A DNA stretch of 64,000 nucleotides, taken from positions 1,736,001 to 1,800,000 of the forward strand of contig JAHWDD010000008.1 of NCBI GenBank assembly GCA_023897205.1. The letters are read 5' to 3'. Position numbers and translations under genes: made by a program. The DNA comes from Exophiala sp. HKRS030. Lineage: Eukaryota > Ascomycota > Eurotiomycetes > Chaetothyriales > Herpotrichiellaceae. Below are positions 5,673 through 42,027 of this stretch, in pieces (positions within the stretch are counted from its first letter, which is position 1; each line of letters opens with the position of its first letter). The notes below the pieces were generated by a model, which saw only the letters and a program-made list of their open reading frames with translations, was not told the origin of the DNA and searched no databases.

Positions 5673-6954
5673 CTTGTCTTAGTTTAGATGGATGTAAACG
5701 TGCCCGACAACAAAGTCCGGGACGTGTGGCGAATACCGTGTGCAAGGCTGAGAAAGCCTGTTGAAGTTAAACGACGGGAAGAAGGTTGGTCGCCACTTCA
5801 GAAAGGAGGACAAAAGGAAGACCGTGCTTGTAATCTTAATTTTGATGGATATTGAATAGGAATATGCAGTATAGATGGTGAAATCAAGTCCTTATGGATT
5901 GGTCATCACTGGAAGGATAATAGTGAGAGTAAGGAAGAAGCAGGATGAGAGATTCAGTAGGTGTCAAGGTAACCAGATGTAAGGGTTAGGTCAAAGAGAG
6001 TAATCCGACGATGAGATGGACATAAGGAAATTCCGGAGGACAGGACTCGGCAGGCGGATTGCTTGATGTGAATTGTCATCTGCCTCGATTCAAGAAAAAA
6101 CTCGAAGGGATGGGCCACGATGGGCCACGATGGGCTCAACGGGTCTAGCCGGCCTCGGAGGAGAAAAGCATGTTCTTTTTTTCTCTCGAGGACTAGCCAC
6201 CCGAATTTCGCAGTGGAATGTGAAGATAGTTCCACGGTACACCAACTACGCACATCTAAACGACAGGGAAATATGTTGTATAGCTATTATACCTTGACTT
6301 TTCGATACTATCATGGCTCTTGATGTAATGTTGAGACGGGTCTAATGATGAAATCGCTGGGCTCGCTGAGAGGATGGGTGATTATGAAATGGATCAAGGC
6401 ACACAAAAACATTGCCCCTCATCTATCACCACTAATTGGTGCCACCGGGCCCGAGTAAATGAGGTCCAGCCCACAGGTCGCCAGGCGAGAAGGATATAAG
6501 ATGCCGTAGGTACTAATGTCAATATCATTATTCATGTCAACTACAGTAGGATAATGCACATTGTAGATCGATCTGAATTACCCTGCCAGAGAACCTGCGT
6601 GACCTGCCCAGCGTTGCCCATCTGCACAGTACCTGCCAATACTGCCACTGCCGCCATTGGCCCCTGGCCGCACCTGCCGCAATGGATGACAAGTATGACA
6701 CACAGGACTGGCAGGAGCCATCGTGGTCATCGGCTCGTGGGTACTACGGATAGTTAGTTAACCCAGTAGCCTTATTAGGCCGGGAACAAAGGCTAGCCGA
6801 CTCCCGAAAGCCCGAAGCCCCTCGGACATCAAAATTCAAGGTTCAAGGGCCACGAAGGGCCAACGGATGAGGAATCCCGCTTCCCCGCTGCAGCCACGTG
6901 ACTCAGGGCGTCTTCCACGGTCAGGCACGGTCAGCCCACCGTCTGCCTCGGGCT
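5673..6954. other. Intergenic: IDO upstream region and 3' flank of the regulator
   Basis: About 1.3 kb with no credible gene. It contains a short direct duplication, GATGGGCCAC twice at 6111-6130, and a C-rich patch at 6600-6680. The IDO promoter must lie at the left end. I see no clear TATA element. Confidence 0.5.
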
Positions 6955-8825
6955 TCATCCCCATTTACAATATGGCCCATGTGTAGACCCAACATACAAT
7001 GAGTCTTGGTATCCATGAATCCATTCTTTGAGCTCTTCCGAGATATCATGATGGCTCTTCTTCAGATCCCAGAAGTCCCTAGGAAGAGAAGAGGGTACTC
7101 CAGTATCAACTTCCACAATTCCGGCTCGAAGGGCAATATCCAGTCGTCTCGCCAGTGGCCATCGTCGTCCACACATATTGACTCCATGCATCAAAGTATC
7201 AAACATGGGTTCGCGGCTCTGCTCCAGGTACTTGTACAGGATAAGTTTGAATCTGGCCGCAATGAAGAGAAACATGCTCAGGAATGGCGTATTGAGCTCG
7301 GCGTCCACGTCGCTGATGCTTCGCACTGCCGCCACTAGGTCTTCGCATGCTTGGACACTGCGACGAAGCGGGATCTCACTGCTTGGCGATCCATCCAGTC
7401 GTAGAACCCGTTGGTACAGCACAATCACGGCCGCTGGAGACAGCACGCTTGTATGCGTGAGATTAGGGTCAAAATCGATCAGGCCGTTCGCCAGCAACGT
7501 GTAACTGGTATTGGGATGGGCACTGACATAGCTCATCAAATTGTTGTAGATCTCATCGCACGTGCTGAGTGCCACATCCTCCCGGTTGTCATATCGCCCT
7601 CTTTCATGCTCGTGAATGAAAGAGTGTAATGGTTGAAGTGCAATGGCGGCAAGATGCACGTGGCTGCGAAAACTATCCTTGAGGTCCGGTGTGCTGATAT
7701 AGGCTATACTGGAGAGGTGGTCTACCAGAGCCGCCGAAACATCACGCCATGAAACTCCCAACGTCGACACTGCATCGATTGCCAGGGTCACCCAAGTCAG
7801 GGGGATAGCACGCTCCTCTCCTGCATTACTACCCGCTGCCGGAGGTCCAACTTGGGCAGGACTTTGCACCGCCATTTGATTCAAGAGCTTGCGAAACAGT
7901 CCAATGTTTTCACACATGCGTCGACAAACCGACAATAGGCTGAACGTGCTTTGGATATTATCCGATCCGCAGTCGAGGATGGCCACGATCAGGAGTGCCT
8001 GCAAAGAGCTTAGCGAAGCTTTCGACAACGCCTCAGTCAGCACTTGGGATCGAAGATGTTGCGACAACCGATGTCGACCATGATAGCCCAGGCAAATGGC
8101 TTGACTGGAATATGCCACTTGTAAAGCAATTACCGCCTTCAACACAATGTCATCAATGTGGGTCAGTGGCGTAGGCAATGCTTCAAGAGCACTTTGAACA
8201 TGCTGCCGGCTCAAGATGGGCAACCAGAGGTGAGTCTCTTTGAAATGCTGGTCCACTAGGCTGTACAAATATTCTCGTGGGAAGGTCATCAGATCCCTGA
8301 CTGCATCTTCAGACTCGGTAAGTACTTTCTGTCGGACAGGGCCAGGCGTGAACGGCGTTGGTGTGTTATCAGTCACATTCTGCGTTGGGCCTGTGTATAT
8401 CTGTCCAGGCACATCTAATATCACCGGCGATGATTCTATGGCTCTCGTAGAGCCCTCCACATGACTAGACGAAGGTGTACTCGCACTCTCCCTCAGCGTC
8501 GTCACCTCCCTTTCCAGAGATTCTTGGACCAGCAGTAACATCAGCGAGGAATCCCGAACCCACCCAAAGACATTCAACGGAGAGTGACATACCAAGCCTC
8601 GCTTCAAGTTCCGACACATATCCAGCACGTAGACCTCGTTTCTTGGGCTTTGCCACATACTGGCAACTGACCTTTGCCTTTACACAAAACCCACACCGAG
8701 GTAGGATGCGATCACATTTCGTTTTCCTCTGTCTGCACAGGTAGCAACTGCACAGTGCAAAAATCCGTGTTAGCCCAAAATATCCCGTTGTAATCCAAAC
8801 ACGAGATGCTAGGCGACATGTTCAT
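6955..8825 (-). CDS. Zn(II)2Cys6 fungal transcription factor
   Basis: Predicted nuclear regulator of about 581 residues in three exons: 8825-8803, 8747-8593 and 8522-6955. The zinc cluster reads CYLCRQRKTKCDR followed by LPRCGFC and a final Cys, which is the C-x2-C-x6-C ... C-x2-C-x6-C pattern encoded at 8746-8675. It is followed by the basic linker KPKKRG and a short heptad-like segment (SELEARLESLEREV) formed across the 70-bp second intron (GTATGT...CCAAG). The rest is a fungal-specific middle homology region with LWLPILSR and a long helical body. The first exon (MNMSPSIS) is inferred from a 55-bp intron with GCTAAC branch and TGTGCAG end, so the true start is less certain. It is divergent from the polyol dehydrogenase at 9661, a layout often seen for pathway-specific regulators. 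The target pathway is unknown. Confidence 0.85.
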
Positions 8826-9660
8826 CTCACACTGTATTACTGGTGCCTTCCACGGCCGACTCGTCCGAAGTCTGACTTCGCATTCCCGCGTCTCACAGCC
8901 AGTGCTAAGTCTCTCGAGATAGAAAGATTCTAGAAGTCGAAAGCTAACCAGGACGGCGAGACTCGCAAATAATGATCCAGTTTTGACTCTGTGAACTACA
9001 TCTCGGGCACAAGGGCCCGAAGACGATGTGACGGCGGGACATGGCCCGATAGAATTTCTCCAGCTTCGCCTTGTACCTACGGAGTAGGTTAGGGGCGAAG
9101 TCTATTGCCGATTCAATAGTGGATCTACATGTTTACTTACAGGCCGATCCAATAATGGATGTTTGGACTTTATGTTGTGCTGATCCGTTCCGTACTTCCG
9201 TGGAGCTTAGACATGACGATCTTGGACCGTCGTGGACCGTCTATGGTCAAAGCACCAAAAGAACCGATCGATTCTGCGGAGAAAGGACCAGCAAACATGA
9301 TAATTCGTGTATTCAAGCGAAACCCCCAATGACAATGTGACCGTGTGTCAATTGGAGACGTCTTTTGCAGAGCGGGGTGTGCAGGCCACACGTGGCACGA
9401 GCAGGGGAGGAAGATAGAGAGACCTTGTGTGACTGACATCCAGATGGATAAAAGATGTGCTGAACGACATCGCTATAAAAGAGTGGCTTGAATCTTCTTG
9501 AAATTCACAGAGGCTCAATTTGGACATGCCACTCGACCTTTTGCAGACGAGAACAATCTCCGACAACACGAATGCTTAAAGGTCCCAATGAACAGTAAGC
9601 CGTTGAAAAGCATATCTTGAACCTACAGACCAACCGTCATCCCACTTTGCAAACCCAGAT
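8826..9660. promoter_or_regulatory. Shared divergent promoter, regulator / polyol dehydrogenase
   Basis: About 835 bp between two divergent starts. TATAAAA lies at 9474-9480, 181 bp before the dehydrogenase ATG. One perfect copy of the dispersed 9-mer TACGGAGTA is at 9078-9086. No open frame of note. Confidence 0.5.
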
Positions 9661-10892
9661 ATGTCCATGGCAAACCCATCGATATTCCTCTACGGGCCCG
9701 GTGATGCAAGGCTCGAAAACCAACCTGAGCCGCGCATCACGGACCCCAGCGACGTGATCGTCAGGATCAAGTACGTCGGCGTGTGCGGAAGCGATGCAAG
9801 TATCCCCCCTGTTCTTACACAGACGCTACGCCAGGCCCAACTATACACAAAACCTCTACTACCACGGTAAGCGAGATGAAATGAACGAACACTAACACGA
9901 AAAGCGAGGGATATACAGGTCCACTTCTGGCAACACGGCGGCATCAACAACAAGAACGTCAGTCCAACCTCACCACTCGTCATGGGCCACGAAGCATCCG
10001 GGACAATCCACGCGGTCGGCCCGGCCATCACCCACCTGCGCCCAGGGGACAACGTCGCGATCGAACCTGGCCGGCCATGCCGGATCTGCACTCGCTGCAA
10101 GGAAGGCTTGTACAACCTATGCATCAGCATGAAATTCGCCGCCTGCCCGCCGGACACACAGGGCTGTCTGGCCAAGTACTTCAAGACCGCGGGCGATTTC
10201 TGCTACAATTTGCCCTTCGGGGTGAGTCTGCAGGAGGGCGTGCTGGCGGAGCCGTTGGCCGTCGCGGCGCATGCGGTGCGAATGGTCAATGTGAGGCACG
10301 GGCAGAGCGTCGTAGTGTTTGGATCAGGCACGATTGGGCTCCTGTGTGGGGCGATGGCGAGGTTGTTTGGCGCGAAGAAGGTCATCATGGTCGATTTATT
10401 GCAGCGGAAACTCGATTTCGCTTCGCGGTTCATACCAGGCGTCGTTGGCACCGTGGTGCCGGAGCAGGGGGTGTCGGTGGAGGAGAGCGCGGCGAGGATG
10501 GTGCACAGGTTTGAGCTGGGACTGGGTGCAGATGCGGTGATTGAGGCGTCTGGCGCCGAGAGTTCGATTCAGACAGCGGTCCATGTGCTGAGGCCTGGAG
10601 GGTCGTGTGTGCAGACGGGGTTGGGCAAGGCTGTGGTGAATTTTCCTATCTTGGCTATGAGTGAGAAGGAGCTGCACATGCATGGGGCGTTTCGATATGG
10701 CCCGGGGATTATCAGGTTGCGATGGATGTACTTGAGGCGGGTAGCATTCCAGTGAAAAGCCTCATTTCGAATATCTTTGAGTTTGAACGCGCGACGGAAG
10801 CTTGGGAGGCGACACGGCAAGGTAGCGGGATCAAAAACATGATTCGTGGTTACGGATATAGAGAGTCGAGTTCTAGCCGGTCAGCATTATAG
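9661..10892 (+). CDS. Zinc polyol dehydrogenase (xylitol/sorbitol type), frame slip near 3' end
   Basis: Medium-chain NAD-dependent dehydrogenase that would oxidise xylitol or sorbitol to the ketose; about 369 residues if the slip is corrected. Exon 1 is 9661-9795 and exon 2 starts at 9919. Evidence: VGVCGSD with the catalytic zinc Cys, then VHFW, MGHEASGTI (zinc His and Glu), the structural zinc lobe CRICTRCKEGLYNLC, MKFAACPP as in fungal xylitol dehydrogenases, a VFGSGTIGLLCG Rossmann motif, and MVDL ending in the NAD-selecting Asp. At 10699-10707 the frame stops matching the family after GAFRYGPG. Adding one G to the GGGG run restores DYQVAMDVLEAGSIPVKSL and an end at TAG 10890-10892. Without that the frame ends early, at 10755. 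Junction 1 is either a GC-AG intron (GCAAGT...ACAG, 123 bp) or a GT-AG alternative adding six residues. Confidence 0.88.
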
Positions 10893-11051
10893 CGCCAGGT
10901 GACACAAGATGACCATGTGAGTGTAGACGGATCCATGAGATAGAACACAACAGCTTTGCATGACATAACTACCTCCAAGATTATCTGCTCATCTTTGTTC
11001 ATAGCCATATATATACAATTTTGGAAAAGACATTATTGAGCACAAGAGCTC

Positions 11052-12655
11052 TTAGTGTTGGCTCCATTCGATAGTGTTTAGATCAATACCTTCCTGCACA
11101 AGTTCCCAGAGGGGCTCAGCTCTCTCAGGAACGTGACACGTTCCTTGACAGCTTGCAGGACATAATCGATCTCACTAGTAGTGGTGAATCGACCAATACC
11201 GAATCGAATACTGCTATGAGCACTCTCGTCGCTGTTTCCTAGGGCACGGAGGACATAACTTGGTTCGAGTGATGCAGACGTACAAGCACTGCCGGATGAA
11301 AGAGCAATATCTTTCAAAGCCATCAGAAGCGATTCGCCTTCAACATAAGCGAATGAAACATTGACACATCCAGGGTAGCGTCTCTCGGCATCTCCATTCT
11401 GAGATGTGTGCTCCAACGATAGAAGTCCATTGAGTAGTCGATCAGACAGGAATTTGATTCTCTTTGAATCGTACTGTACAAGAGAAGTCAGTATATGCCT
11501 TAGGCAAAATGCATGTGATGATGTTGGATATTTTGCTTACCTCCATTTCCTCTTTTGCGATACGACAAGCCTCACCGAAGCCAACGATTAGGTGAGGAGC
11601 GAGAGTACCACTTCGTAGACCTCTCTCTTGACCACCTCCACTGATGATTGGATCCAATCTCACACGAGGACGTCTCCTGACATAACAAGCACCAACACCT
11701 TTGGGACCATAGATCTTGTGGCCTGAAATTGACATCAAGTCGATATTCCAATCATTGACGTTAATGGGGATTTTGCCCACTGCTTGGGCGCCGTCGGTAT
11801 GGAAATAGACCTTGTGCTTCCGGCAAATCTGTCCTATCTCTTTCATGGGCTGAATTACGCCAATCTCGTTGTTGACAGTCATGATACTAACAAGGGCAGT
11901 TTCTGGCTTGATGGCAGCTTCGAGTTGTTGAAGGTCGATCAGGCCGTTGTTACCAACAGGCAGATATGTCACCTCAAAGCCCTCATCCTGCATGTGTCGA
12001 CAGCTGTCCAAAACACACTTGTGCTCAGTTTGTGAGGTGATAATGTGCTTCTTTTTTCCAGCTCGACCGAAAAATCTTGCAACACCCTTAATACTCATGT
12101 TGTTACTTTCGGTAGCACCACTGGTGAAGATAATCTCTTTGGGATCAGCACCAATCAATTTAGCAACATGCGCTCTAGCTTGTTCAGCACCCTGCTCACT
12201 CTCCCAGCCGTATGCATGTGTCCTCGAATGAGGATTGCCGTACAATCCGGTAAGATAAGGAAGCATTGCGTCGAGGACTCTGGGGTCAACTGGGGTAGTA
12301 GCTTGAGCGTCAAGATAGATGGGCCGCGTGCCTTGATCCATTATAGTCGCTTGCTTGAGTATGCCAGCCTGAGGACTCATCATGGCGTCCCAGACAAACC
12401 CGTGCCAGGTGTTTTGACTTGTGATGGTAGATTTCCTGTTTCAGATATGAATTTTTTCTGGTCGGCCTTGATAGCCGATTCGACGTCGGTGACCTGAGCC
12501 TGGACAGGCTTGGATTCGGAGACATAGTTTCGGTGCTGGTTGAACCGCGTAGCAATCAGGGCCGGGGATCGTGAGTGTAATGATGGAACAGTACTGAGAC
12601 GACGTGGGCAGATGCGTGAAGCATGGCGCACAACGCTGGAGGCCGGGCCAGACAT
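11052..12655 (-). CDS. NFS1: Mitochondrial cysteine desulfurase NFS1, two frame slips
   Basis: PLP enzyme that takes sulfur from cysteine for Fe-S cluster assembly and tRNA thiolation, in the mitochondrial matrix. About 512 residues once corrected. N-terminal presequence ([19 protein letters not shown]), then [83 protein letters not shown] with the PLP lysine, QERGLRSGT and the active-site loop [21 protein letters not shown]. One intron, 11540-11474 (67 bp, GTAAGC...TACAG). Two slips: at CCC 12388-12390 the conserved DAMMSP motif appears only if one base is added, and at GGGG 11111-11114 one added base gives the family C-terminus [20 protein letters not shown] and a stop at 11054-11052. NFS1 is essential in yeast, so these are most likely assembly errors. 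Confidence 0.93.
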
Positions 12656-13810
12656 GGTTGATGCAGGTCAGACCAGCTGACTGACGATTGAAGTTTTCGT
12701 GGCTAGAGTGCGATGCACTGCAGAGGGATGGGTTCGTGGAAGATAATGGTGATGCTCAGAATGAGGAATGTTGGAGGCAAATCTACACCCTACCGGAAAG
12801 TTGTATTAATCAGATAAGATCAGATCGAGTTCAAAGCCGAGCACCGCTCGGCTTTATGGGGCGGAGCATAATGTCGACGGAACTCATGATCCGCTGTACG
12901 CAAAAAAGGTTGACGAGGCGTGACGAGGCCGTCCGCATGACTCGAGTATGCTGTACACCTAGGTGATGTCCATGAGCATTCAGATCCCGAAGATAGACCA
13001 TTGGGAACATGGCGAACAGGAATCAAGATGCTTTGCTAAGCAACATATTCTTGCGGTTATCATCCGATGTATATTTCTACGTGCATAGGTGCCACTTAGG
13101 TGGGTGCAGGATTCATGACTCTCTGTTAGGAATTTGTGAATGAGTGCATTAAGCTTGAAGAACGTAGGATTGGCATCATGTGGCGCCAATAGTCATCATG
13201 AGCCAAGAGCTTCAGCCACAGCCCATAGCGAATGCCGAGGCGGAGATGGAGGAAAGTGCGTCATCAACTGGGCGATTCAATGTGGTCCGTGGCCTGTCTC
13301 GTATGCTCACCGTGGCTCACCTAGGCCATAGTGGCCGTAGCTCTTCAATAATGGGACTGTAAGCAGGTAGCCTGTAGCCTAGTCACCTTCTGAGCAAACC
13401 AAAACTCGTGTATGACCCCGGTAAGCGCAAGCCTGAGCCTAAGTCTGAAGGCCTGCAGCTGCCAACTACCCTGTGCCCATGCCTAATAAGATCTTCCAAC
13501 TCCTCCCTGCTGTTATTTCTTTTACCCGCACCCGCAACATCGTTGTTTGTGATCCTTCCAAGTAAACGGCCCCTCCATCTACACACCTTTCAACCACACA
13601 TTTGGCCTTGATTCAGGCACCACCATATTCAATCCTAGTTCTCTCTCGCACTCAACAATACGACCGCACCTTTGAAGTCTTTCTCCAAATCATACAACAT
13701 CGAAACGAGAATCCCTCCTCTTCCGAGACTTCCATTCCTCGACTTCAGTCGCACAATCTCGACAAAGTGAGAGGAGACAAATCAAGCCCATTGGCGACAC
13801 CCCACCAAGC
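12656..13810. other. Divergent intergenic region NFS1 / amphiphysin
   Basis: No gene is supported. Pyrimidine-rich sequence at 13490-13760 probably forms the 5' leader of the amphiphysin gene. The open frames here overlap each other and lack motifs. Confidence 0.45.
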
Positions 13811-15177
13811 ATGAGTCTCAAGGGTGTAGGAAAAAGTCTTACTCGCGCACCCCAACAGTTCAAGCAACGCTTTAACATTGGGGATAACACAAAAGATGCT
13901 GTCTATATCGATGCGGAACGTCGTTTCGCAGAGCTAGAAACAGAAACCAAGAAACTCCACGATGAGTCTAAAAAGTACTTTGATGCTATTAATGGTGAGA
14001 TAATCGATGCGCAATGCGAGGCGATCTCACTAATATCTACAAGGCATGCTCAGTCATCAGATTGAATTCTCCAAAGCCATTCAAGAAATCTACAAGCCAA
14101 TTTCGGGTCGTGTGTCAGACCCAAACTCGATAATCCCGAGGGAATCCAGAAGGCATCAGAGCCTGTGAGGAATATGAAGCCATCGTTCGAGAATTACAGG
14201 CGACATTACAACCCGAACTAGAAATGATTGAGCAAAGGGTAATTGCGCCCGCAGATCAACTCCTTGAGGTCATCAAAGCCATCCGGAAACAGTCGGTCAA
14301 ACGCCAACATAAGCAGCTTGACTACGACCGGCATCGCGCCACCCTGAAAAAGCTGCAAGACAAAAAGGAGAAGACGCTCAAGGATGAAAAGGCTCTTTTC
14401 AAGGCGGAAAACGATGTGGAACAAGCCACACAGGATTACGAATATTTTAATAATCTGCTCAAGGACGAATTACCCAAGTTGTTTGCCCTGGAAGCCGAGT
14501 TCATCCGCCCGTTATTTCAGTCATTCTATTACATGCAGCTGAATGTATTCTACACGCTCCACGAAAAGATGCAAGGCATTAACATTGGCTACTTTAACCT
14601 GACTTTGGACATCGAAGAGGCTTTTGAAATGAAGAGGGGTGATGTCAAAGAGAGGGCCGAGGAGCTTTCGATAGTCCATTTCAAAGGCATCGGAGGAATC
14701 AAAGTGCAGAAAGGCCTTTCAAAATATGCGATTGGGAAGTCAAAAGAAGCTGAAGCTAGCAAGTCAACCTATGCCCGGAAGACGCATAATCCCGAAGACG
14801 GCATTTCGAATCCTCCTCCACCATACTCACCGACAGGTGGTGGAAGTGCACCCAGTAGTCCTGCTCTGGCAGCATCCATCGCCGCAAAAGGCAAACCACC
14901 ACCACCCAAGCCCAAGCCAAGTCGACTCAGCGGAGTACCGGCAGCAGAGACGGTAACGGCGTTGTATGACTACGAAGCACAAGCCGAAGGGGATCTGAGC
15001 TTTATGACCGGCGATGTGATTGAAATCATTTCGCGAACACAAAATGAAAATGAGTGGTGGACAGGAAAGGTCAATGGTAAACAGGGCCAATTTCCTGGTA
15101 AGTCTACGGTTGAAACTAGATGTTGCATTCGTATATATTGACAATGTGTTACAGGAAATTATGTCCGCCTAAACTAG
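13811..15177 (+). CDS. BAR-SH3 amphiphysin-like protein (Hob1/Rvs167 family), frame slip
   Basis: Membrane-curving endocytic protein acting with cortical actin patches; about 420 residues. Exon 1 is 13811-13994. Intron 1 is 49 bp (13995-14043, GTGAGA, CTAAT branch). Exon 2 is 14044-15097. Intron 2 is 57 bp (15098-15154). The last exon is 15155-15177 and encodes the SH3 end GNYVRLN. The BAR domain covers about residues 15-250 ([59 protein letters not shown]). A Pro-rich linker ([20 protein letters not shown]) follows, then SH3 ([33 protein letters not shown]). At 14134-14142 (TCCCGAGGGAA) the frame breaks. Adding one C and one G gives the family block IPEGNPEGI; removing one C also restores the frame but loses that match. 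Confidence 0.9.
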
Positions 15178-16221
15178 GCCTGTCCTCTTCTAGGAGTACG
15201 TCCGTCGGGATTTTGTGCGAGGGTACCTAACGACAGTACAGGTGTCGCTCCCTCGTCATCCATCGAATCGTGACACCGCACAGATTTAGAACCTATTTTC
15301 AGGCCAAACGTTCTGATAAATTCCGTCCCGTCAAGTTCTAGCTATAACTTGGGGCACAATCCTGGAAACTCAGATATTGATCCAATTACCTTGGTTCGCC
15401 GGCGCCCGTCACTCCCGGTGTTCGACTTGTAGCTTGGGAGTCCTACGAGAGTTCAAAGACAGAGTTTCTGTCATTACAGGCCTCAATGAGTCCGCACAAA
15501 AGGACGAACATGATCCGAGTTAGTAGGACAACCTGGAAGATAGACTGGAGGGCGGTGACCGTGGCATTTGTGGCATTTGTGGCGATTAGCATAACGAACC
15601 CGAGGTCTGTGGAATGTTCAGGATACAGTACTCTTGTTCGAACGGGAACGGTAGAAAGACGTAAAACTCCTGTCAAGTGCTGTATTAGATCAGTGATAGT
15701 GATGGTGACGATTGATGTTGATCCTGTGGCTTTGTTAAATTCCCTATGTGCTGCATCCTCAGGAACTTTGGATTCGTCGCTCGGAATTACCACTTCGCTA
15801 GACAATTTTCTTATGTTGTATCTAAATCTGGTACAGACGTTCAAATTCTAGATTATGTTCTTTACGAGTAAGGACCAGAACGGTTGGGGCTATCGACGGG
15901 CCTTGAAGGCGTCTGCTTACCTACAAGAATCTCAGACCAGGGAGCTTTAAATACCTTAACGCCAGTACACACTACGTCAGAATTTTACTGTGAACAGCAG
16001 CCAAGCATGCATTGGGAGAAATTGGTACGAAACGAGATCAGTCTAGCAGCTAGGATATTTGAGTAATCGTGGTTGACAATATTGAATTCTTTTGGGGTAT
16101 CATAAAATGCTAATTGCTAATTCATTCAGGCATGCAGAGTAGTAGAGTCCGTCAGCGCCCAAGTATCAGTAGGATATTTGGTGTCGAGTGTGTGGGTTGG
16201 AAGTGTGGCCACTTGTCGTGT
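15178..16221. other. Intergenic, no gene supported
   Basis: Between the amphiphysin and the convergent CsbD gene. Both strands have a roughly 120-130-codon open frame at 15443-15851. Neither has an ATG context, domain or intron signal that persuades me. A direct repeat GTGGCATTT lies at 15561-15578. Confidence 0.45.
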
Positions 16222-38166: not shown

Positions 38167-38805
38167 TTACTTCACTTGAGTGAAACTCGAACCTTTGACT
38201 TGAGCCTTCTTGGCCGTCCACGGCCCATCGAACCAAACGCCATCAGTAACAATCAACTTCCCATCCTTTGTAAACCGAACGCCCTCCTCGGTCAACAGAC
38301 GCAATTTCATGACCTGATTGACGCCCGACGGCGCCTTCTCCCAATCACCCTTGAACCCGCCGACAAACCCATCACTCGCAATCACCCGGTGACACGGCAC
38401 CTCGGGCGCGAACGGATTCACGCGCAGCGCACCCCGACCGCGCGCGGCGACGACCCCAGTGCCCGCGCCAGCGCCGCGTACGTCGTCACTTGCCCGCTTG
38501 GGATCATCAGGAGGTGGGCGTAGACGCGCTGTTGTAAAGAGAAGAGAGGGGGATCGGTTAGAGAGGTTGCAATGCAGGAGATGGGGAAGGAGGTGAGAGG
38601 TGAGAGGTGGGAAGTGAGAGGGGAAGGGCGTAGCTAGGTTTGAGAACGAGAGGGTAGGTAGGTAGGTAGGTAGGTAGGTAGGTAGGTAGGTAGGTAGGTA
38701 GATAGGTAGGTAGACAGGTAGACAAGTGGGCGGGTATATATGTATACAGAGAGTGAGTGAGGGAAGGAAGAACATGCTTACCTCTTGGAATTCAGTCACC
38801 GCCAT
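38167..38805 (-). CDS. MGMT-family protein with catalytic PCHR motif, frame slip
   Basis: Small O6-alkylguanine alkyltransferase-type protein of about 128 residues once corrected. Exon 1 is only 38805-38782 (MAVTEFQE). A long 253-bp intron (38781-38529, GTAAGC...CAACAG) contains a GGTA microsatellite. Exon 2 starts RVYAHLLMIPSGQVTTYAAL. Downstream come NPFAPEVPCHRVIASDG with the alkyl-acceptor Cys, and GGFKGDWEKAPSGVNQVMKL. At CCCC 38432-38435 the frame breaks; one added base gives SPRAVGGALRVNPFAPE as the family requires. In length it resembles the alkyltransferase-like (ATL) proteins, which lack the N-terminal domain and carry PWHR, yet this one keeps the Cys. Role: repair or recognition of alkylated guanine in the nucleus. 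Confidence 0.85.
   Translation of the reverse strand: MAVTEFQEVSMFFLPSLTLCIHIYPPTCLPVYLPIYLPTYLPTYLPTYLPTLSFSNLATPFPSHFPPLTSHLLPHLLHCNLSNRSPSLLFTTARLRPPPDDPKRASDDVRGAGAGTGVVAARGRGALRVNPFAPEVPCHRVIASDGFVGGFKGDWEKAPSGVNQVMKLRLLTEEGVRFTKDGKLIVTDGVWFDGPWTAKKAQVKGSSFTQVK
38653..38712. repeat. GGTA tetranucleotide microsatellite
   Basis: About twelve consecutive GGTA units followed by interrupted copies (GATA, GACA variants) up to about 38725. It lies inside the intron of the MGMT-family gene; on the coding strand it reads as TACC repeats. Confidence 0.95.
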
Positions 38806-38830
38806 ACTCCTCCTGCCCGCTACCTTCTTA

Positions 38831-38940
38831 TGTATGTTTGTCTGTCTGTTTGTCTGGATGTCTGGATGTCTGGATGTCTGGATGTCTGTCTGTCTGGATG
38901 TCTGTCTGTCTGGATGTCTGTCTGTCTATCTGTCTATCCA
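38831..38940. repeat. Compound TGTC/TGGA microsatellite
   Basis: Alternating TGTC and TGGA tetramers just upstream of the MGMT-family start codon (38805, minus strand), so it lies in the promoter or 5' leader. A shorter GTAT run follows at 39044-39062. Confidence 0.9.
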
Positions 38941-40703: not shown

Positions 40704-41296
40704 ATGAGAATCATTTACCTGTTGGCCGTGGCTCTGCCACCATTGATCTTAGCAGCGCCTCTTGGGTCCAAGTTGGAAACAAGGGAAGCCATTGCCCAGC
40801 TCAGCCATTTTTCAGAGCGTCTTCTTCCACCTCGATCCACATCTGAGATCTTAGGCCTCCTCCGTCGAGACGCTGAAGCCAACGCAGAGCCAGGTGGCCA
40901 TTATTGGGGTGGGAAACGGGATGCAGAGGCTGATGCAGATCCAGGTGGCTCTGCATGGGGTGGGAAGAGAGATGCTGAAGCCAACGCAGAGCCAGGCGGT
41001 CATTACTGGGGTGGGAAAAGAGATGCTAAGGCCAATGCAGAACCGGGCACTAGTCAATGGGGAGGAAAACGAAGCGCCGAAGCTGATGCAAACCCAGGTG
41101 GCTCTGCATGGGGTGGGAAGAGAGATGCTGAAGCTGATGCAGAACCGGGGCTCGTCAGTGGGGTGGCAAACGAGATGCTGAAGCCGATGCAAAGCCAGGC
41201 GGCTCTGCATGGGGTGGGAAGAGAGACGCTGAAGCCAACGCCGAACCAGGTGGCCACTACTGGGGTGGGAAAAGGAGTACCGAAGCAACTTCATAG
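40704..41296 (+). CDS. Secreted multi-repeat precursor with Kex2/Ste13-type sites (KEP or pheromone-like)
   Basis: Predicted preproprotein of about 197 residues if one frame slip is corrected. Signal peptide MRIIYLLAVALPPLILAAP, then a pro-region ending LGLLRR. Eight tandem 17-residue units follow at exactly 51-bp spacing (40869-41275). Each begins with X-Ala dipeptides (DAEANA, DAEADA, SAEADA), then a nine-residue core, then a Kex2 dibasic (KR, once RR upstream). Cores seen: EPGGHYWGG (three times), DPGGSAWGG, EPGTSQWGG, NPGGSAWGG, EPGARQWGG and KPGGSAWGG. X-Ala leaders are the substrate pattern of Ste13 dipeptidyl peptidases in alpha-factor maturation. GGGG 41147-41150 appears one base short; as printed, the frame leaves the repeat in unit 6 and ends at 41318. 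The cores have no Cys, unlike known ascomycete alpha-pheromones. No UstYa-like gene is seen nearby, so a dikaritin-type RiPP is less likely. Confidence 0.72.
40869..41275 (+). repeat. Eight 51-bp tandem repeats coding peptide units
   Basis: Units start at 40869, 40920, 40971, 41022, 41073, 41124, 41174 and 41225. All are 51 bp except the sixth, which is 50 bp because of the short G run at 41147-41150. The copies differ mostly in the core codons and at synonymous sites. Confidence 0.93.
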
Positions 41297-42027
41297 CTGG
41301 ATACTCGTGCCGGGGTAAAGGGCTGTACCTGGAAGGGATACTGATTGAACTGCTATACATTTCTCCCTGTAGTGGTGTTTGTCGAATATGATCGCATACG
41401 TACACGGCTTTCGTGGGTGAAGCTCTCAACATATGGATTTGAGTTTGGGTTGATTGCATCTTGTAATAGCTGGTTTGGGCTGCACAATTCTCCGTCATCC
41501 CAGCACAGCTTCCATGGGCTGGTAAAGTGACTCGATGCAGCGGAAACAAAGGATAACACCTCCTCGTCATCTTCTTGATCCAGGGTCTGCAAAACATCAT
41601 AACATATTGGCTTCGATTTCGAAGGTAGATGTGAAATGGAAAAAGTGATCAAGTACGGTTTGGGCGAAAGTTCGCTGTCATAGGTTGATTCATTGAGCCA
41701 TTAGCAATAACCAAGGGTATGCATGATGCAGAGACACCTGTGCCATGCATGACCTTCGATGACTGTTGAGCAACATAAAATAAGTCCAGAGATAGGCTGA
41801 AGAGAACCGTCAGGACTGCCGAGACACTTGCGGCGTTAATTGGCCTTGTAGTCAGCCCTACAGTCGAACCCCAATGTTGCACTCAGAGTAGCTATGCTTC
41901 TCTCAATCAAAGCTCCTTCACTCCTCCACCAAACGAATCCAACATCGCAGACAACTACGGCTACAGGAAGGCGCATTCCCACCTGCCCTTCTTCCAAAAG
42001 TCCGATCTATCGCAGATTCTCCCAAAT
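41297..42027. other. Intergenic before NDUFB7
   Basis: About 730 bp. 3' flank of the precursor gene and promoter of the complex I subunit. Overlapping frames on both strands have no motif. Confidence 0.4.

What the first reader, a model, noticed from the sequence alone, without database searches (positions are those of the whole stretch)
40704..41296. Eight-unit secreted peptide precursor with cysteine-free Pro-Gly...Trp-Gly-Gly cores
Seen: a signal peptide, a pro-region, and eight 17-residue units at exact 51-bp spacing. Each has X-Ala dipeptides, a nine-residue core and Lys-Arg. Known: alpha-factor-type precursors are cut by Kex2 and trimmed by Ste13, and KEP and dikaritin RiPP precursors share the layout. 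Inference: the gene releases up to eight copies of at least six related peptides such as EPGGHYWGG and DPGGSAWGG. The cores lack the Cys pair of known ascomycete alpha-pheromones, and I know no family with a [EDNK]PGxxxWGG core. It may be a new pheromone, a signalling or antimicrobial KEP, or a RiPP substrate.
Basis: partly seen in the sequence, partly recalled or inferred. Interest (0 to 1): 0.88.

Follow-up and report, generated by a model that had tools for sequence, protein, structure and literature searches.

The report
Repeated secreted peptide precursor, black yeast
A black-yeast fungus carries a gene built like a mating-factor precursor that should be cut into several copies of short, cysteine-free peptides ending in Trp-Gly-Gly; the layout is of a known kind, the peptides look undescribed, and one repeat is a base short so the reading frame breaks after five copies in this assembly.

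Summary
The precursor is real: signal-type start, pro-region, then eight repeats, each with X-Ala dipeptides, X-Pro, a G..xxWGG core and Lys-Arg. The finding missed that unit 6 is 50 bp, not 51. The open frame is 40704-41318 (204 aa) with five intact units; units 7-8 lie in a shifted frame ending at 41296. Codon changes between units favour silence (at least 20 of 30, about 23% expected), unit 8 included, so the break is recent or an assembly error. The fungus is an Exophiala-type black yeast (one STE2 equals an E. oligosperma protein). No Cys-type or Pleosporales-type alpha-pheromone was found, none of 14 UstYa matches lies on this contig, and two STE2 genes lie on it at about 310 and 325 kb. 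Best reading: a KEX2-processed repeat protein (KEP) with STE13 signature giving linear secreted signal peptides. That it is the lineage's alpha-pheromone is open.

The parts
40704..41318 (+). Open reading frame of the peptide precursor as it stands in the assembly (204 aa, single exon)
40704..40757 (+). Signal-type N-terminus (residues 1-18; cleavage after 17, 18 or 22 fits the -3/-1 rule)
   Evidence: simple rule only
40758..40868 (+). Pro-region ending in Arg-Arg (residues 54-55)
40869..40919 (+). Unit 1 DAEANAEPGGHYWGGKR
40920..40970 (+). Unit 2 DAEADADPGGSAWGGKR
40971..41021 (+). Unit 3 DAEANAEPGGHYWGGKR
41022..41072 (+). Unit 4 DAKANAEPGTSQWGGKR
41073..41123 (+). Unit 5 SAEADANPGGSAWGGKR
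41124..41173 (+). Unit 6, 50 bp, one base short: the reading frame changes inside it
41174..41224 (+). Unit 7 in the shifted frame, DAEADAKPGGSAWGGKR
41225..41275 (+). Unit 8 in the shifted frame, DAEANAEPGGHYWGGKR
41276..41296 (+). Short tail STEATS and stop (41294-41296) in the shifted frame

Best explanation
The gene encodes a KEX2-processed repeat protein of the alpha-factor build. The protein enters the secretory pathway; Kex2 cuts after each RR/KR; a Kex1-type carboxypeptidase removes KR; a Ste13-type dipeptidyl aminopeptidase strips three X-Ala dipeptides and probably also X-Pro. What leaves the cell is a set of linear, unmodified, cysteine-free peptides: GGHYWGG, GGSAWGG and GTSQWGG (or the 9-mers with X-Pro still on). 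They most likely act as a secreted peptide signal between cells of the same fungus. Shown: repeat anatomy, invariant cleavage and ladder residues, excess of silent change between units, a Kex2-type gene in the genome. Inferred: each cleavage step, secretion, the 7-mer end point, the signalling role. In this assembly the frame breaks in unit 6, so the gene as read would yield five cores; the break is either recent or a sequence error.
For: Anatomy. Position by position in 7 of 8 units: A at 2, 4, 6 and P at 8 never change while 1, 3, 5, 7 vary (D/S, E/K, N/D, E/D/N/K); G9, WGG and KR never change. Selection: over all 17 codon columns of the 7 units at least 20 silent against 10 replacing changes (binomial P about 4e-7 at 23% silent, 4e-4 at 35%); in the 10 residue-invariant columns 12 codon changes, none replacing. 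Units 1, 3 and 8 (grouped because their peptides are identical) differ by 5-7 silent changes per pair, dS 0.67-1.42, dN 0; in the other two frames the same differences are mostly replacing, 16 of 16 and 10 of 16. Machinery: Kex2-type P-domain at C1:5118786. Layout and STE13 signature as described for KEPs and alpha-pheromones in PMC6339444 (Results, first part of the Discussion, one further section and passages seen). No UstYa match on C8 (0 of 14, a lower-bound count).
Against: No transcript or peptide data. The frame is broken in unit 6. Summed over all 21 unit pairs, replacing differences outnumber silent ones, 155 to 124 (44% silent, still above 23%). Different cores in one precursor are unusual for a single-receptor signal (recalled). 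Ste13 and Kex1 genes were not searched. The only Pfam match over its cut-off, Apidaecin, best fits residues 53-66, spacer and first core residues, and says nothing of function.
Confidence: 0.6

Rival explanations
1. It is the alpha-mating pheromone (STE2 ligand) of this Exophiala lineage, a cysteine-free type replacing the Cys-type peptide. This is a special case of the best explanation.
For: Alpha-factor build with X-A/X-P ladder. No Cys-type precursor found: 7 matches to the WCxxxGQxC DNA pattern (reversed control 6), none in a KR-repeat frame; a Cys-type precursor protein (P0049) used as query gave 3 matches, the two best (14.7 and 14.2 bits) on this very gene and one at 10.8 bits on C1, while mock Cys-type precursors score 24-60 bits with two to four copies and 17-19 bits with one. 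No PYG[LM]P[IV]G match. Two STE2 genes on the same contig and a MATalpha_HMGbox gene at C8:2575133.
Against: The L019 receptor is identical to an E. oligosperma protein yet no hit named as E. oligosperma resembles the precursor. Cores differ within the precursor. The receptor genes are about 310 and 325 kb away, so there is no tight linkage. The mock scores come from local phmmer, not from the tool's own first-look filter. A single-copy or differently built Cys-type gene would be missed.
Confidence: 0.25
2. It is a KEP whose peptides act on other organisms (antimicrobial or host-directed), the core variety reflecting several targets.
For: Two cores each present in three units, plus another in unit 4. 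PMC6339444 discusses such roles for KEPs.
Against: The 7-mers are short and mostly Gly, with no Lys or Arg and no amphipathic stretch (from sequence); PMC6339444 says the STE13 signature is absent from precursors of toxic cyclic peptides.
Confidence: 0.18
3. It is the substrate of a cyclising RiPP pathway (dikaritin type).
For: Signal peptide plus Kex2 repeats is the shared layout. UstYa genes exist elsewhere in the genome.
Against: None of 14 UstYa matches lies on contig C8; PMC7329392 gives an average distance of 3.09 genes when the two occur together. Neighbours here are a GH72 glucanosyltransferase, an alkyltransferase, glutamate-cysteine ligase and a purine permease. A ladder for dipeptide trimming is not expected.
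Confidence: 0.07
4. It is a decaying gene: the 1-base shortfall in unit 6 is real and fixed.
For: Unit 6 is 50 bp; no hit named as a close relative.
Against: Five intact units remain and Kex2 sites up to unit 5 are unaffected; unit 8, past the break, shows only silent differences from units 1 and 3, and the shifted frame stops 18 bases after the last KR.
Confidence: 0.12

Closest known systems
KEX2-processed repeat proteins with STE13 signature (Le Marquer 2019, PMC6339444; Umemura 2020, PMC7329392)
   Same: Secretory start, at least 3 tandem repeats, KR sites, X-A/X-P dipeptides after the cut. PMC7329392 Table 2 already lists two KEP types that include Exophiala: G-7, mostly without a DUF3328 neighbour, and G-3, mostly with one
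   Different: The core G-[G/T]-x-x-W-G-G is not named in the parts of either text that I read; PMC6339444 names a YVW[G/A][G/S] conserved core, which shares only the W-G-G end. The profile logos (figures) and supplements, among them that of G-7, were not seen, so this gene could belong to a type drawn there
Filamentous ascomycete alpha-pheromone precursors (Cys-type; Pleosporales PYG[L/M]P[I/V]G type)
   Same: Whole precursor layout and processing logic
   Different: No cysteine, no PYGxPxG; several core variants in one precursor
Alternaria repeat proteins P0001 (A. alternata) and P0044 (A. tenuissima)
   Same: Signal-type start with VALP...ILA, repeats ending in WGGKR; P0001 has GPGGVKWGGKR
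   Different: Longer and irregular spacers without a full X-A ladder; P0044 core GKGVHWGG; P0001 at E 2.5e-4 by single-sequence search, so distant kinship or convergence cannot be told apart
Dikaritin precursors (ustiloxin type)
   Same: Signal peptide plus Kex2 repeats
   Different: No UstYa match on the contig; STE13 ladder present

Membership tests
KEX2-processed repeat protein (KEP) | Secretory signal peptide | tested here: inconclusive
   Hydrophobic stretch and -3/-1 sites by simple rule only
KEX2-processed repeat protein (KEP) | At least three tandem repeats bounded by KR/RR/KK | tested here: met
   Five in-frame units, eight in DNA
KEX2-processed repeat protein (KEP) | Kex2 protease in the genome | tested here: met
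   One P_proprotein match, C1:5118786-5118956, 59.2 bits, positions 1-57 of 86
KEX2-processed repeat protein (KEP) | Peptide release | not testable with these tools
   Needs mass spectrometry
STE13-signature KEP / alpha-factor layout | X-A or X-P dipeptides directly after the Kex2 site | tested here: met
   (X-A)3(X-P) in 7 of 7 comparable units
STE13-signature KEP / alpha-factor layout | Ste13 and Kex1 enzymes in the genome | not tested
Ascomycete alpha-pheromone | Known core type (Cys pair, or PYG[LM]P[IV]G) | tested here: not met
   Cores have neither
Ascomycete alpha-pheromone | STE2 receptor in the genome | tested here: met
   Two STE2 matches over cut-off
Ascomycete alpha-pheromone | Activates STE2 | not testable with these tools
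   Needs a receptor assay
Dikaritin RiPP | UstYa (DUF3328) gene close by | tested here: not met
   0 of 14 UstYa matches on C8
Apidaecin (Pfam PF00807) | Pro-rich antibacterial core | tested here: not met
   48.4 bits, over the cut-off of 23.1, but the best stretch is residues 53-66, mainly spacer

The most novel reading that the evidence does not exclude
Some Exophiala-type black yeasts have given up the cysteine-type alpha-pheromone and mate, or signal, with cysteine-free heptapeptides of the form G-[G/T]-x-x-W-G-G; this genome carries two different STE2 receptors and one precursor that releases at least two core types, so receptor and ligand may have diversified together.
Probability: 0.22. 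Interest if true: 0.72.

Novelty: new member of a known kind. Interest (0 to 1): 0.45.

Why it matters
In the open-licence library I saw no described alpha-pheromone for the black yeasts (order Chaetothyriales): listings (8 of 8 papers; 15 of 89; 8 of 10), and passages of three of these papers; one of them reports alpha-factor-like precursor and receptor genes lost in Endocarpon, a lichen fungus of another order. Yet 18 named hits from black yeasts and relatives carry the STE2 domain. If this peptide or its relatives bind STE2, it would name a missing ligand and allow mating tests in fungi known mostly as asexual. If not, it is one more KEP with a conserved, testable product.

Tried and rejected
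Pfam Apidaecin match: rejected, mainly spacer. NCBIfam at E up to 1: no match for the precursor or the two Alternaria proteins. Core DNA pattern over the whole genome: 27 matches against 21 for the reversed control; I had written that pattern one base too short, so it could only fit the 50-bp unit 6 of this array and tested nothing; the pattern of right length was then run on the window alone. Paralogue of the precursor in its own genome: all 5 matches at E up to 10 lie in this locus. Copy at the duplicated neighbour loci: the second glutamate-cysteine ligase (C6:1985038, 82%) and the second GH72 gene (C8:1666279, 79%) were located and 8.0 and 7.5 kb beside them read; several frames have four or more KR/RR, none has tandem units or a W-G-G-K-R end. 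Synteny of the window with C6 near the second NFS1: matches only for window 6.9-15.1 kb. Mixture of two species as the sole cause of the doubled STE2: not settled; NFS1, GCS and a Use1-like gene (Pfam score below its cut-off) have second copies on C6, but STE3 and the MATalpha gene have one match each. Core words in papers: nothing relevant by title. Bacterial promoter scan and Rfam gathering search: nothing of use. PDB sequence search with the two STE2: no match. P0002 and P0051 carry WGGKR repeats, name no organism and were not used.

Full report
What is there. The window is C8:1736001-1800000 of an unnamed 59.8-Mb genome in 50 contigs. At 40704 a frame opens with a hydrophobic start, runs through a pro-region to Arg-Arg at residues 54-55 and then enters a 51-bp tandem repeat. 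Eight units can be counted in the DNA, but unit 6 has 50 bp. The frame from the ATG therefore carries five intact units, ends in a tail without any Lys-Arg and stops at 41318 (204 aa).

Is it under selection. Seven units can be compared codon by codon (unit 6 was left out). A lower-bound count over all 17 columns gives 20 silent and 10 replacing changes, against about 23% silent expected from random single changes (22-24% by unit). In the ten columns where the residue never changes there are 12 codon changes. Summed over all 21 pairs of units, 124 differences are silent and 155 replacing, 44% silent. Units 1, 3 and 8 code for the same 17 residues with 6, 5 and 7 silent differences (pairs 1-3, 1-8, 3-8); these three were grouped by their identical peptides, so zero replacement there is partly by choice, but the number of silent changes is not, and in the other two frames 16 of 16 and 10 of 16 of the same differences would replace residues. 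In a simulation of nine random substitutions, all nine were silent in 0, 0 and 1 of 200,000 trials at transition weights 2, 4 and 8. Unit 8 lies beyond the frame break and still fits, so the break is young or a sequence error. I could not look at reads.

How it most likely works. After each KR come residues X-A, X-A, X-A, X-P. The A and P positions are fixed in 7 of 7 units and the X positions vary (D/S, E/K, N/D, E/D/N/K). Ste13-type enzymes take X-Ala and X-Pro dipeptides (stated in PMC6339444, passages seen), so the ladder can be followed through the X-Pro. The likely products are GGHYWGG (three units in DNA, two in the open frame), GGSAWGG (three and two) and GTSQWGG (one and one). This end point is inference. 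A Kex2-type gene is present; Kex1 and Ste13 were not searched.

Whose genome. One STE2 protein (L019) is identical over 415 residues to an Exophiala oligosperma protein (P0003; order Chaetothyriales); the other (L018) groups with E. mesophila and an unnamed protein. NFS1, GCS and a Use1-like gene have second copies on contig C6 at 86, 82 and 56% identity, while STE3 and the MATalpha gene have one match each. The genome may be an old hybrid or partly doubled; I could not settle it.

Pheromone or not. No Cys-type precursor turned up: the DNA pattern for WCxxxGQxC gave 7 matches (reversed control 6), all read in frame and none in a KR repeat; a Cys-type precursor as query gave three matches, at 14.7 and 14.2 bits on this gene and at 10.8 bits on C1, against 24-60 bits for mock precursors with two to four copies and 17-19 bits with one copy. 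The Pleosporales motif gave no match. The nearest named proteins are from Alternaria (P0001, P0044), with WGGKR repeats but other spacers. P0044 was found with a profile that already held P0001 and is no separate evidence.

RiPP or not. None of 14 UstYa matches (a lower-bound count) lies on C8, and the nearest named neighbours are household genes. In PMC7329392, 22% of KEP genes have such a neighbour, at an average distance of 3.09 genes, and 98.6% of putative fungal pheromone genes have none (abstract and two sections read).

Known or new. The build is that of KEPs with STE13 signature (PMC6339444; Results, first part of the Discussion, one further section and passages). PMC7329392 already lists two KEP types that include Exophiala (G-3 and G-7), so a KEP in this genus is expected; their profiles are in a figure that I could not see. 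Neither the text that I read nor the word searches show this core. I file it as a new member of a known kind. The wider claim, a cysteine-free alpha-pheromone of black yeasts, stays possible and testable.

Noticed in passing
L018 (C8:2102195-2102842) and L019 (C8:1467403-1467972): Two STE2-type receptor genes, 39% identical over 363 aligned residues, on one contig, placed in different Exophiala clades, whereas STE3 has a single match.
   Followed up: partly
window 6900-15200 and C6 about 2132000-2140300: Inverted block of several genes shared between C8 and C6 at 68-79% DNA identity; together with second copies of GCS and a Use1-like gene on C6 it hints at a hybrid or partly doubled genome.
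   Followed up: partly
C2:2353222-2358890: Five UstYa-type matches (exon by exon) within 6 kb, a likely dikaritin-type cluster elsewhere in this genome.
   Followed up: no
window 40851-41600, minus strand: A 249-aa open frame mirrors the repeat on the other strand; most likely a by-product of the repeat.
   Followed up: no
window 38653-38935: Short tandem repeats (periods 4, 8 and 16) beside the alkyltransferase gene.
   Followed up: no
P0002 and P0051: Proteins without an organism name and with many WGGKR repeats (FYPWGGKR, SWGGKR); they recall animal neuropeptide precursors with amidation sites (recalled, not tested).
   Followed up: no
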